A stretch of 64,000 nt of DNA from positions 1 to 64,000 of the forward strand of contig JAMDDH010000002.1 in the NCBI GenBank assembly GCA_023488885.1, given 5' to 3'. Positions 5,341 through 49,014 of this stretch are shown here, in pieces (position 1 is the first letter of the stretch; each line of letters opens with the position of its first letter). This DNA comes from Thermoplasmatota archaeon. Its GTDB lineage: Archaea; Thermoplasmatota; Thermoplasmata; Thermoplasmatales; Thermoplasmataceae. The notes beneath the pieces were generated by a model that saw only the letters and a list, made by a program, of their open reading frames with translations, had not been told where the DNA came from and did not search any database. The translations under genes and the position numbers were made by a program.

Positions 5341-6591
5341 TTGTGCATGGATGACAGAGAGATTTGTGAACACCTGTACAAAGTGAAGAGACCATGGTTT
5401 GTATCACGTGTTTCTGTGTCTGATGAGGGAAAAAGGGTGGACATGTATCTGGAGCATGAGAAGGGTGTCAGATGGCCATGTCCATTATGTGAAAATCTCC
5501 TGTCAGTATCAGATCACGTCAGGGAGAGGGTATGGAGAGATCTTGACAGTGGCCTGTACAGGGCATACATCCATGCATCAATACCAAGGGTAAGATGCCC
5601 TGAACATGGAAGGATACAGGCAAAGGCAGAATGGTCCGAGAAGAGCTCAAGATTTACAGAACGTTTTGAAGCACATGCGATAGATGTCCTGTTATCAACA
5701 GACACGAAGAATGCTTAAAGAATACTGGGAATAAGCTGGGACGAGGCATGGAACATCATGGACAGGGCTGTCAAGAGGGGCATTGCGAGGAAAACATCTT
5801 CACCGAAAAGAATCGGTATTGACGAAAAATCTTATGGGAAGTACCATCGCTACATGACCATTGTATACGATATTGACAATCCTTCGGTTGACAATATTGA
5901 GCTTGACCGAAAGAAGGCATCGCTGGACAGATATTATGCAAAGATTGGAAAGGATGCAGCATCGAAAATAGAGGCGGTTTCAATGGATATGTGGGATCCA
6001 TTCATCGCATCCACAGAATCAAATGTGACAGACGCGGAATCGAAGATTGTCTTCGACAGGTTCCACATAATGAAGCACATGAACCAGGCGCTCGATGATG
6101 TCCGGAAGATGGAATCAAGGATGGCAGAATTCAGGGAAACCCTGAAGAAGACCAGATACCTGTGGCTCTATTCCTCTGAGAACCTCCCGGACAGATACAG
6201 GGAGAAATACGAGATACTGAGGGAATCCGATCTCAAGACGGCAAGGGCCTATGCAATAAAGGAGAATCTTCGTAACCTGTGGCAGTGCGGAACGGAAGCA
6301 GAGGCAAGATCATTCTGGAAGAAATGGTATTACTGGGCTTCACATTCCCGTTTAGAACCAGTGAAGAAGGTTGCAAGGATGATGAAGAACTATCTGTACG
6401 GCATCCTGTCATACTTCAGGCACCACATCACCAATGCAATCGCAGAGGGACTGAACTCAAAGATTGCAACAGTACAGAAGATGGCTTACGGGTACAGCAA
6501 CAAAGAGCATCTGAAAACTGCAATCTATTTTCATTGCGGGAATCTGCAGCTTTATCCGGGATGCATTAAAAGTAAGGATGTATCAGTATGA
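5341..6591 (+). pseudogene. ISL3-family transposase broken by one in-frame stop
   Basis: One continuous reading frame of about 416 codons from a TTG at 5341 (ATG at 5347), interrupted only by a TAA at 5716-5718. Both halves are in the same frame. The first half has a zinc-ribbon-like CPLCENL ... RCPEHG segment. The second half has the ISL3 catalytic core: GIDEKSYGKY (first Asp), SMDMWDPF (second Asp), IVFDRFHIMKHMNQA, and AEGLNSKIATVQKMAYGYSN (Glu). Apart from the TAA nothing looks degraded, so the mutation is young. The element may still be mobilised in trans if an intact copy exists elsewhere. Confidence 0.9.
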
Positions 6592-45130: not shown

Positions 45131-45571
45131 TTATTCGGACAGCAGTTTGTCCCTCAACGAACTGAAGAGCTCATCGATCATTTTCCGGGACTGGCTTCCA
45201 ATTACTCTCTGGCCAATAGATCCAAGTTTACCGCCAATCTTTGTATCCGCAGTCCAGTTCATTGTCGTCAGGCCGTCATTCTCAGACAGATCCATTACTG
45301 CCTCGATATCCAGGGTTCCTCCGAGACCGGTGCCGTTTCCTACCAGTTTGGCATGATCGCTTGGCACACTCTCGACCACCTTGAATTTTATGTTAAAATC
45401 TCCCTTTATGAAAGCAACGCCCGCTCTCACCACAACAGAAAATTCATTGGGCGATGTCACATTAAGGCTTTTAAACCCCGGTATGCAGGAGGATAATTTT
45501 TCCGGAGTCATTAACACATCAAACACTCTGTCCTTCGGTACCTTTACTTCAAAAGTTCCATTAAAATTCAT
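45131..45571 (-). CDS. CoxG/SRPBCC-fold protein
   Basis: 146 residues. It begins MNFNGTFEVKVPKDRVFDVL, then SSCIPGFKSLN and GTGLGGTLDIEAVMDLSE, matching the CoxG (carbon monoxide dehydrogenase subunit G) subfamily of START-like ligand-binding proteins. No CO dehydrogenase genes are present, so a role in membrane or lipid handling is more likely (inference). The start codon is now supplied with upstream sequence by the IscB element; its native ribosome binding site, GAGGCGTTTGA before ATG, was moved to 47068-47078. Confidence 0.82.
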   Translation of the reverse strand: MNFNGTFEVKVPKDRVFDVLMTPEKLSSCIPGFKSLNVTSPNEFSVVVRAGVAFIKGDFNIKFKVVESVPSDHAKLVGNGTGLGGTLDIEAVMDLSENDGLTTMNWTADTKIGGKLGSIGQRVIGSQSRKMIDELFSSLRDKLLSE

Positions 45572-46809
45572 CTAACTATCCCCAAGGAGACCCCATGCGC
45601 AAGCGTGGGGAGGAATTGGGGTGCAAATTGTATTCCTCTCCCATATTTTACCAACTTTACTTTTTTTACATTAGCATCCGTCTTCTGATCGCCTTTTCTT
45701 ATTATTACATATTTTCCATAATTGTGCACTCCTACCACCGAGAACCTGGAATGATTAAATGCAACAACGTCACCGGGCTGAAACGAGTATCTTTTTCTTC
45801 TTATGGAGGGTTTGAATCCCTTCCTGTTTGTCTGAAGAGAACGATTATTCCTTCTTCTCTGCGTAACCATGTGCTGCGGCGTTCTGACCTGATTCGCCCC
45901 TCCGGCTATGACAAACGCGTCGTTCGCATGGCTCTTTTCCATGCCCATGGAAATGCGGGTCTTCTTTGTGATGTGTCCGAATGTGTAATCTGATCCTGTG
46001 AGTTGTGTGATCTTCCATCTCACGATATTCATGAAGGCGGTATCCTTCAACGTTTTCAGCGATTTCCCCCGTACTTCCGGAAAACCAAATTCTTCGGCTG
46101 TGAGATTGTTTTTTTTCTGGTTGCATTCATGACAGGAGATTGCGAGATTGGAGACCATGTTTGATCCGCCCCTGGATTTAGGTGTGAGGTGCTCTATTTC
46201 AAGCGGCACATTGGTCTTGCCGCAATAGACGCACTTTCTATGGAACTTCTCCAGCAGGTATTCCCTGATCTCATATCCCTGGAGATCACCCTGCTGGTAT
46301 TCTATTCCGCTGATCTCAGGATTTCTCATTTTCTGGGTATCAAATGAGGCAACCTCGATGATAGTCCTGGATATGGGAAGGATACTCTTCAGCTTCTCAA
46401 TGATCCTGATGTGTGTCTGGAGTTTGTGATCGATGCTGGGTGCAAACCACCCTTCCTTGTGGTTCCCCCTGTTCATGAATCTCGCCTGCCTATACCATAG
46501 CCTGTTTCGTCTGTTCCTGCGATACATTGCCTTTTCCAGGTTCTGCTTCGGTATGTCCGTTCTTATGATCGCTTCACCTGAGATCAGTTCTGCCTTTTCA
46601 GTTACGGCGGAGAATCCAATGTGTTTGTATCCCGCATCTATTCCGAGGGTCACGGGTTCCACATTTTCTTCACAGTGCCAGAGCAATTGGATTGTGAATG
46701 GATTGGTGGAAAACATCTTTGCTTTCCTTTCCCTGAGAAGGTGCCTCGCCTTCGCCGGTTTACACGGCATCAGTGGCTTTCCATCATCATTTAGAATAAA
46801 TACCGGCAT
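45568..46809 (-). CDS. iscB: IscB RNA-guided HNH/RuvC nuclease
   Basis: 413 residues from the ATG at 46809, which begins the PLMP domain (MPVFILNDDGKPLMPCKPAK). The frame stays open 61 codons further upstream to 46992, but that stretch is better explained as omegaRNA. Counting from 46992: RuvC-I Asp119 (LGIDAGYKHIG), Arg-rich bridge helix 156-175 (MYRRNRRNRLWYRQARFMNR), RuvC-II Glu213 (TIIEVASFD), HNH 254-291 with CVYCGK, EIEHLTPKSRGG and SCHECN, and RuvC-III His355/Asp358 (KSHANDAF). All catalytic residues are present. Its TGA is formed from the ATG of the next gene (ATGA overlap). Confidence 0.93.
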   Translation of the reverse strand: MPVFILNDDGKPLMPCKPAKARHLLRERKAKMFSTNPFTIQLLWHCEENVEPVTLGIDAGYKHIGFSAVTEKAELISGEAIIRTDIPKQNLEKAMYRRNRRNRLWYRQARFMNRGNHKEGWFAPSIDHKLQTHIRIIEKLKSILPISRTIIEVASFDTQKMRNPEISGIEYQQGDLQGYEIREYLLEKFHRKCVYCGKTNVPLEIEHLTPKSRGGSNMVSNLAISCHECNQKKNNLTAEEFGFPEVRGKSLKTLKDTAFMNIVRWKITQLTGSDYTFGHITKKTRISMGMEKSHANDAFVIAGGANQVRTPQHMVTQRRRNNRSLQTNRKGFKPSIRRKRYSFQPGDVVAFNHSRFSVVGVHNYGKYVIIRKGDQKTDANVKKVKLVKYGRGIQFAPQFLPTLAHGVSLGIVR

Positions 46810-47067
46810 ATCGGCTTTATGCCCTCCTGCCGGCTGGAGTGTGTCCACATCGGGGTTGTTAGAAGGGGTTTTTAAGTCATGCACACTGTCCGTTTCCGGA
46901 TTGTTTAATGCATGGCCACAGTTGCTGCGGACTTGTGGAGCATCCGCAGGTGTGTATGTATTTCTCCGATCTAACTTCTGCTTTTCTTTCATGTTTTCAA
47001 AGCCCCCTAATCAACTCTTGCGTTGTTCCTCACGGAACAAGCCCCTTCCGTCAGAGGGGTAGTTGAC
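45572..47067 (-). mobile_element. IS200/IS605-group element carrying iscB and its omegaRNA
   Basis: About 1.5 kb. On the minus strand it starts with GTCAACTACCCC (47067) and ends in a hairpin-rich right end (CCCCACGC...GCATGGGG, then CTCCTTGGGGATAGTTAG) at 45572. Joining the flanks gives GCAACGAGGCGTTTGA directly before ATGAAT, a continuous gene start with a GAGG ribosome binding site for the CoxG-like gene. No transposase gene is included. No target duplication is seen, as expected for this group. Confidence 0.82.
46810..47067 (-). ncRNA. IscB omegaRNA (HEARO RNA)
   Basis: This lies directly upstream of the iscB PLMP start, where HEARO/omegaRNAs are found. From its 5' end it contains an outer stem TCAACT/AGTTGA, a hairpin CCCCT/AGGGG, and a perfect stem TTGTTCC-GTGA-GGAACAA. 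Further down come a 7-bp hairpin CTGCGGA/TCCGCAG (46925-46949), a TCCG-GAAA-CGGA GNRA tetraloop hairpin (46889-46900), GTGTG/CACAC and CTCC/GGAG. AGGGG near the start of the scaffold could pair with CCCCT downstream as a pseudoknot. The guide is read from the flank: 47083 to 47068, GCAACGAGGCGTTTGA. Exact ends are approximate. Confidence 0.82.
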
Positions 47068-47178
47068 TCAAACGCCTCGTTGCAGCCCGAGATATTGCAG
47101 GTTCTTAGTACATTCACAGTAAAAAAACTATTGGTAGTCTACTTCATCATAAAATACGCGGAGGGAATTTACCATAGA

Positions 47179-49014
47179 ATGAATCCAAAACCCTCATCTC
47201 TAGATTTCTACGCCTTTATACAGAATTACGGAGAAACCATTTCAGGAAGTTTCATAAAAAAAGTGTATCAGATCGCCGAAACTGATTTCCTGTTCCAGCT
47301 TTACAACTCTTCCGTCGGCAAACGCTACCTGCTGGTATCGCTGAAGAAAGGTCTCGTTTTCTACGAAGCTGAACGCCCGGAAGATGCAACCCCACTATCC
47401 ATGCTACTCCGGAAATCGTTATCAGAGCGGCGTATAGTTGGAATAAGACAGATTAACTTTGACAGAGTTGTAAAGATCAATCTCCACACTGGACAGGAGA
47501 TAATTCTTGAGCTATTCAGGGAAGGTAACTTCATCATAACAAATAATGGTCTGATAGAATTCGCCACAGACCTGAGGGAATGGAAGAATCGTAAAATCAT
47601 GAAGGGAGAGCCATATTCACCACCTTCCGCAAACGATCCTCTTGCGCTTGACCGAGACGGTTTCGCCAAAGTTTTCAGTGCCAGCAAAGCCTCGATAGTG
47701 CAGACGCTGGCAACCAGACTTAACCTGGGGGGCGACATGGCGGAGGAAATACTTTTTCGCGCCACTCTTGACAAAGATATTCCCGCGAAGGAATCACTGG
47801 CAAATATCGAGGCAATCAGGAATGGCATACAGGATATACTCAGTGAATCAAAAGAAAACAAATCATATTATTACAGGGATCAAAACATTGTTTCTCCTGT
47901 GCAGATGACACATATAAATGTACATCCGGACATAACTTACCCGGATCTCAATTCCGGTCTTCTCGACTATGTTACAAGCCATTTTCCATCAGAGGAGGAG
48001 AAAGACCCGATCGCTAAAAGACTGGACTCCATGAAAAAGAGCATCGAGGAGTTTGAGAAACAGCGTGACCTCAGCTTCAGGAGAGGGAATCTGATAATGC
48101 AGAATCTTCCCCTTTATGAAAACATGATTCGCAAACTTAACAAAATCCGTATGCAACGCGATCTTAATACTGTGAAGGAATTCGAAGGCTATACGGTCAC
48201 TTCGTATAAAGCGGCAACAAGAGAAATGTCTTTTGTTATTGATGAAACAGAAGTTATTCTGGACTTAAATCTGAGTGCGGGACAGAACGCTAACCAGTAT
48301 TTCCAGAAAGCAAAGGACTTCAAGAGCAAAATTGAAGGCGCTTTCAAGGCGATTGAAGATACAAAAAAACGTAATGTTCCATTAGCAGTTTCAACAAAAA
48401 AGAAAAGGAAAAAGGAATGGTTTGAGAATTACCACTGGTTCATATCTTCTGAGGGATTTCTCGTAATAGCAGGAAGGGATGCAAAGAGCAACGAAAAGGT
48501 AGTAAAGAAGCATCTCAAGGATCATGATCTGTACGTCCATGCTGATGTGTACGGGGCACCGAGTACAATAATCAAGGTTGACGGAGAAACGAAGCCAGGC
48601 GATTCAACTATTTACGAAGCATGTGCTTTTTCGGTAGCATTCTCAAGGGCATGGCCCGCCGGCATAAGGAGTGGTTCAGCTTACTGGGTTCTGCCTTCTC
48701 AGGTGAGCAAGACACCAGAGTCTGGGGAGTTCGTGTCCACAGGTGCCTGGATCGTCAGAGGCAAGAGAAACTACCTCTTTGATCTTCCCATTAAACTTGG
48801 AATAGTGATGAAAGACTACAAAGGTAACGTGATCCCGATGATCTTTCCAGTGACTGAAAGCAGCAGTTTATCTGACAACACCGTAATAATTACGCCTGGA
48901 GACGAAAAAAGAACATTAATAGCACAGCAGGTTTCAAAAATTCTGGGAATAGACAGGGAAGAAGTGGAATCAATCCTCCCTCCGGGAAATTCCCAGATAC
49001 TTTCCCGGGACTAA
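47179..49014 (+). CDS. rqcH: RqcH/NEMF (Rqc2) ribosome quality control factor
   Basis: 611 residues from the ATG at 47179, about 27 bases after a TATA-like ATAAAATACG (47148-47157). The frame runs back to 47023, but that part is mobile element. NFACT-N domain: LYNSSVGKRYLLVSL, then ELFREGNFIITN and ATDLREW. A helical coiled-coil middle contains MKKSIEEFEKQRDLSFRRGN. The NFACT-R domain contains WFENYHWFISSEGFLVIAGR, DLYVHADVYGAPSTIIK and GSAYWVLPSQVSKTPESGEF. It binds split 60S/50S subunits with peptidyl-tRNA and tags stalled chains. Confidence 0.93.
   Translation: MNPKPSSLDFYAFIQNYGETISGSFIKKVYQIAETDFLFQLYNSSVGKRYLLVSLKKGLVFYEAERPEDATPLSMLLRKSLSERRIVGIRQINFDRVVKINLHTGQEIILELFREGNFIITNNGLIEFATDLREWKNRKIMKGEPYSPPSANDPLALDRDGFAKVFSASKASIVQTLATRLNLGGDMAEEILFRATLDKDIPAKESLANIEAIRNGIQDILSESKENKSYYYRDQNIVSPVQMTHINVHPDITYPDLNSGLLDYVTSHFPSEEEKDPIAKRLDSMKKSIEEFEKQRDLSFRRGNLIMQNLPLYENMIRKLNKIRMQRDLNTVKEFEGYTVTSYKAATREMSFVIDETEVILDLNLSAGQNANQYFQKAKDFKSKIEGAFKAIEDTKKRNVPLAVSTKKKRKKEWFENYHWFISSEGFLVIAGRDAKSNEKVVKKHLKDHDLYVHADVYGAPSTIIKVDGETKPGDSTIYEACAFSVAFSRAWPAGIRSGSAYWVLPSQVSKTPESGEFVSTGAWIVRGKRNYLFDLPIKLGIVMKDYKGNVIPMIFPVTESSSLSDNTVIITPGDEKRTLIAQQVSKILGIDREEVESILPPGNSQILSRD

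What the first reader, a model, noticed from the sequence alone, without database searches (positions are those of the whole stretch)
45568..47067. Intact IscB with full omegaRNA in an archaeal chromosome
IscB is mainly known from bacteria. Here PLMP, RuvC, bridge helix and HNH residues are all present, and a 258-base region directly upstream folds into several perfect stems including a GNRA tetraloop hairpin. The guide can be read from the flank as GCAACGAGGCGTTTGA. A thermoacidophile IscB might be stable at high temperature.
Basis: partly seen in the sequence, partly recalled or inferred. Interest (0 to 1): 0.78.

Follow-up and report, generated by a model that had tools for sequence, protein, structure and literature searches.

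The report
Archaeal IscB transposon at a start codon
An acid-loving archaeon carries several copies of a small, already known kind of mobile element that makes an RNA-guided DNA-cutting enzyme (IscB, the ancestor type of Cas9); the copy here sits exactly in front of another gene's start codon and borrows that codon's letters for its own stop signal, a detail that recurs in related elements but has not been shown to have a function.

Summary
The protein matches NCBIfam guided_IscB at 365 bits and the omegaRNA matches Rfam HEARO at 117 bits (46839-47067, minus strand); all catalytic motifs are present. Sister copies in the same genome and an empty NFACT|coxG site in four congeneric genomes fix the element at 45572-47067 (1,496 bp). 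The guide GCAACGAGGCGTTTGA is the coxG leader. The flanking motif is ATGA in 3/3 copies (ATGAAT in two).

"IscB in an archaeon" is not new: a 2016 title already says "bacterial and archaeal", and one scan returned dozens of archaeal loci. "Thermoacidophile" is not supported (composition proxy about 40 C).

Not found described: iscB has no stop codon inside the element. The TGA of the target ATGA is its stop; the ATG of the same four bases starts the next gene. Among 35 related loci with ATGA, 22 open an ORF of at least 100 codons there (control 15%, p about 6e-10, copies not independent). Fifteen of 41 take the iscB stop from the motif. HEARO insertion at ATGA/GTGA was, as I recall, reported in 2009; the stop/start sharing may be new. 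Cleavage and function remain inferred.

The parts
45572..47067 (-). whole ISC/IscB element, 1,496 bp, GTCAACTACCCC...GGGGATAGTTAG
   Evidence: same ends in three copies with unrelated flanks; empty site in four congeneric genomes
46839..47067 (-). omegaRNA (HEARO RF02033); the 3' end probably runs to about 46811, just before the iscB start
   Evidence: cmscan 117.1 bits, full model; 38/58 pairs with compensatory changes
47068..47083 (-). guide, GCAACGAGGCGTTTGA; native coxG leader with a GAGG Shine-Dalgarno-like motif
   Evidence: lies directly 5' of the omegaRNA; unique exact match in the genome; element boundary from copies
45568..46809 (-). iscB, 413 aa core (PLMP, RuvC-I D58, bridge helix, RuvC-II E152, HNH H207, RuvC-III H294/D297, C-terminal region)
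   Evidence: NF040563 365 bits; PDB IscB alignments; residues invariant among nine archaeal IscBs
46810..46992 (-). in-frame 5' extension of the iscB ORF through the omegaRNA; probably not translated
   Evidence: ORF list; frame also open in other archaeal copies
45566..45571 (-). target/TAM ATGAAT: ATG is the coxG start codon, TGA (45570-45568) the iscB stop codon
   Evidence: ATGA after the right end in all three copies; coxG starts ATGAATTTT in four congeners without the element
45580..45621 (-). right-end hairpin (CCCCAA...CCCCACGCTTGCGCATGGGG...TTGGGG), read through by the iscB ORF
   Evidence: sequence; same architecture in related loci
45131..45571 (-). coxG/SRPBCC-like gene whose start codon is the target site
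   Evidence: orthologues 64-67% identical in four congeneric genomes; the name rests on my reading of the sequence
47179..49014 (+). NFACT/RqcH-like gene, divergent neighbour of coxG at the empty site
   Evidence: orthologue divergent from coxG without iscB in L153-L156

Best explanation
This is a recently mobile, TnpA-less ISC element of the IS200/IS605 superfamily: omegaRNA plus iscB, 1,496 bp, inserted directly in front of the coxG start codon. By established knowledge of IscB, the omegaRNA takes the 16 nt upstream as guide and IscB cuts unoccupied copies of that site (guide followed by ATGA), which would favour retention of the element. It probably moves by a Y1 transposase acting in trans. 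Shown here: protein, RNA, copies, boundaries, empty site, ATGA. Inferred: transcription, cleavage, retention role, transposase. The iscB reading frame runs through the right-end hairpin and off the element, so the target's ATGA supplies both the iscB stop (TGA) and the next gene's start (ATG). Such an overlap could let ribosomes finishing iscB start the next gene and make the insertion less costly; that step is a proposal.
For: HEARO 117 bits; guided_IscB 365 bits; PDB IscB alignments; compensatory base pairs. Three near-full copies at 100, 98 and 88% protein identity in different contexts, with fragments. Joined flanks restore a VapB-like gene end overlapping a VapC-like start (C55) and a YrdC/Sua5-type gene end before PurE (C24). 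Empty NFACT|coxG site in G245, G307, G316, G324. A single Y1 transposase gene in the held genome, beside tnpB on another contig. The ATG of the motif opens an ORF of at least 100 codons in 22/35 loci against 119/791 control ATGAs (p 6e-10), and of at least 80 codons in 16/20 non-Borrarchaeal archaeal loci against 18%. Downstream proteins match models from near residue 1: Fmt, HisS, RqcH, CofE, PorD, ACDS gamma subunit, RpoB.
Against: No RNA or cleavage data exist here. The genome is 92.5% complete, so other transposases may be missing. The gene-start association is weak in an automated set from viral contigs (7/24 against 17%), and the motif positions in the main set were read by hand, so the association may partly reflect survival of harmless insertions or my choice of ATGA. 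Related copies are not independent, so p values overstate the evidence. Only 15 of 41 loci take the iscB stop from the motif; in most others the stop lies before the right end.
Confidence: 0.85

Rival explanations
1. A host-adopted IscB: the copy at coxG has been kept as an RNA-guided regulator of coxG rather than as a mobile element.
For: The guide covers the coxG leader up to the start codon, and the element is intact.
Against: Guide-to-flank identity is expected for any insertion; near-identical copies sit at unrelated genes; congeners lack the element at coxG; nuclease motifs are intact.
Confidence: 0.04
2. An inactive remnant: sequence intact but neither expressed nor able to cut.
For: Truncated and miniature copies exist in the same genome; no expression data.
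Against: Three copies have open frames and full omegaRNAs; 98-99% identity between two copies points to recent movement.
Confidence: 0.1
3. About the start/stop arrangement only (compatible with the main explanation): it is a by-product. The target is ATGA, insertions inside genes are lost, and no benefit follows from sharing the four bases.
For: ATGA is a common overlap between genes in operons (general knowledge), and several joined flanks rebuild such overlaps; the association is weak in viral contigs.
Against: In several lineages the iscB frame runs through the hairpin to the very end of the element, and right ends carry Shine-Dalgarno-like motifs shortly before the ATG in 25/41 loci against 7% background (copies not independent).
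Confidence: 0.6
4. A type II-D CRISPR effector rather than an OMEGA system.
For: Archaeal IscBs have been mistaken for II-D (PMC12988326).
Against: Equivalog match to IscB, Cas9d far below its cut-off; no direct repeats at 43-50 kb; HEARO RNA present.
Confidence: 0.01

Closest known systems
ISC transposons / IscB with omegaRNA (HEARO)
   Same: PLMP, RuvC and HNH motifs, HEARO RNA directly upstream, guide from the left flank, motif at the right flank; most such loci also lack tnpA
   Different: iscB stop codon lies outside the element, in the target ATGA, and the start of the next gene overlaps it
Archaeal IscB elements of Thermoplasmata (E-plasma, WH5 and TL bins)
   Same: 59-74% identical proteins in the closest loci, same RNA and right-end layout
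   Different: E-plasma and WH5.bin35 copies end iscB with a TAG at the last bases of the element instead of the TGA of the target
IS605-type tnpA-tnpB element in the same genome (C22)
   Same: IS200/IS605 superfamily; possible source of transposase in trans
   Different: encodes TnpB and has other ends; no proof that its TnpA moves the IscB element

Membership tests
IscB (RNA-guided nuclease, NF040563) | sequence match above curated cut-off | tested here: met
   365 bits against 175
IscB (RNA-guided nuclease, NF040563) | PLMP, split RuvC and HNH with catalytic residues | tested here: met
   alignment with OgeuIscB and relatives
IscB (RNA-guided nuclease, NF040563) | omegaRNA/HEARO directly upstream | tested here: met
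   RF02033 117.1 bits, covariation
IscB (RNA-guided nuclease, NF040563) | RNA-guided cleavage next to a TAM | not testable with these tools
   only the genomic motif ATGA is seen
ISC / IS200-IS605 transposon | defined ends shared by copies in unrelated flanks; empty site without target duplication | tested here: met
ISC / IS200-IS605 transposon | Y1 transposase inside the element (autonomous form) | tested here: not met
   one TnpA gene in the genome, on C22; only a few HEARO nucleases have one nearby (PMC9755519), so this bars autonomy, not kinship
type II-D CRISPR-Cas9 | CRISPR array beside the gene | tested here: not met
   no direct repeats at 43-50 kb

The most novel reading that the evidence does not exclude
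Some IscB elements have evolved a translation-sparing way of inserting: the target motif ATGA is at once nuclease motif, insertion target, stop codon of iscB and start codon of the next gene, with a ribosome-binding site at the element's right end, so that the host gene stays translated by coupling to iscB.
Probability: 0.3. Interest if true: 0.65.

Novelty: new member of a known kind. Interest (0 to 1): 0.42.

Why it matters
It gives a fully bounded archaeal IscB element with guide, motif, sister copies and empty sites, ready for a cleavage test. If the shared stop/start arrangement is functional, it would show how a transposon and its nuclease motif can be tuned to gene starts so that insertion costs the host little. 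It also warns annotators that the iscB ORF is over-long at its 5' end (into the omegaRNA) and ends on a stop codon that belongs to the target site.

Tried and rejected
Archaeal 16S rRNA for naming or temperature: none found in the held genome. Guide matches elsewhere in the genome: none closer than 2 mismatches, no more than the reversed control. Homology between the IscB right end and the C22 IS605 left end: only a loose resemblance, not counted as evidence. Gene-start enrichment in viral contigs: weak. CRISPR repeats near the gene: none. The 2009 HEARO paper, the 2016 ISC paper and the 2021 OMEGA paper are not held, and a search for HEARO with ATGA found nothing relevant; ATGA/GTGA insertion of HEARO is recalled from memory, not checked. 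No structure was predicted because sequence matches already decide the family.

Full report
Observation. The window holds an IscB gene and its omegaRNA. Rfam HEARO matches 46839-47067 (-) over the whole model at 117.1 bits. The protein matches NCBIfam guided_IscB at 365 bits and aligns with solved IscBs across PLMP, RuvC-I, bridge helix, RuvC-II, HNH and RuvC-III. Among nine archaeal IscBs, D58, E152, H207, H294 and D297 (core numbering) are invariant. The RNA shows compensatory changes at 38 of 58 pairs in 15 relatives, and the GNRA hairpin is present.

Extent. The 474-aa ORF begins at 46992, inside the RNA; the frame stays open there in other archaeal copies as well, but the conserved protein starts at 46809. 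The genome (1.86 Mb, 66 contigs, 92.5% complete) has three near-full IscB copies and several fragments, five HEARO matches, four above the cut-off, and a miniature copy on C9. The three full copies share GTCAACTACCCC at the left and GATAGT(T/G)AG at the right, and each is followed by ATGA. The element is therefore 45572-47067.

Empty site. In four genomes of the same genus the NFACT/RqcH-like gene and coxG lie back to back without iscB, and coxG there starts ATGAATTTT. Joining the flanks of the two other copies restores a VapB-like gene end overlapping a VapC-like start (C55) and a YrdC/Sua5-type gene end next to PurE (C24) (gene names from my reading of the sequences, PurE confirmed by Pfam). 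The guide is thus the coxG leader, and the motif is its start codon.

Stop codon in the target. The iscB frame has no stop inside the element. It reads through the right-end hairpin, and its TGA is the TGA of the target ATGA. Of 41 related loci whose motif I read by eye (36 ATGA loci among them, 35 with enough flank), 15 have this arrangement, in archaea and a few bacterial bins. In the 35 with ATGA and enough flank, 22 open an ORF of at least 100 codons at that ATG, against 119 of 791 other ATGAs in the same flanks (p 6e-10; non-Borrarchaeal archaea 16/20 against 18% at 80 codons). Most of these frames are closed shortly upstream in the joined flanks, and many of the products match family models from near their first residue, so most look like real gene starts. 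Several joined flanks rebuild the ATGA overlap of operon genes. A separate, automated set from viral contigs shows the ATGA motif but only weak gene-start enrichment, 7/24 against 17%. Shine-Dalgarno-like motifs lie shortly before the ATG in 25/41 loci (background 7%), but copies are related and the motif is part of the element.

Kin. A tree of 71 IscBs places the window protein with its two sister copies and Thermoplasmata proteins, within a large, mostly archaeal group that also holds some bacterial bins. Archaeal IscB is known from the literature. In 293 genomes of the phylum, six pass the IscB cut-off, so it is patchy there.

Host. The window's proteins give an IVYWREL estimate near 40 C (formula from memory, error of ten degrees or more). 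The closest named relative by IscB is E-plasma. Thermostability is therefore not supported.

Mechanism. That IscB cuts an unoccupied site next to the motif, and so helps retain the element, follows from established work on IscB, not from tests here. A single Y1 transposase gene was found, with tnpB on C22; movement in trans is an inference. Translational coupling at the ATGA overlap is a proposal.

Verdict. Real, intact, recently mobile, and a new member of a known kind; the shared stop/start codon is the part worth following.

Noticed in passing
L012 (G000:C9:544-741 region): Miniature element: omegaRNA-like sequence (76.8 bits, below the cut-off) followed by an internally deleted iscB, sitting before ATGAAAAAAGG, which opens a glycosyltransferase-like gene; a possible RNA-only guide source served in trans.
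   Followed up: partly
L051, L055, L052, L056 (G258, G088): IscBs of another Thermoplasmatota class carry a different HNH type (VHHINGK...CKTCH) in place of the usual one.
   Followed up: no
L060 (G088:C72:44540-45058): PLMP/RuvC protein without a recognisable HNH domain, IsrB-like.
   Followed up: no
L084-L141 (Borrarchaeum contigs): Many IscB copies in single Asgard (Borrarchaeota) genomes, with motifs ATGA, GTGA and ATAA.
   Followed up: partly
window 5347-6591: Two adjacent ORFs that look like a split ISL3-type transposase.
   Followed up: no
window 46810-46992: Reading frame open through the omegaRNA in several archaeal copies; will be annotated as an over-long iscB.
   Followed up: partly
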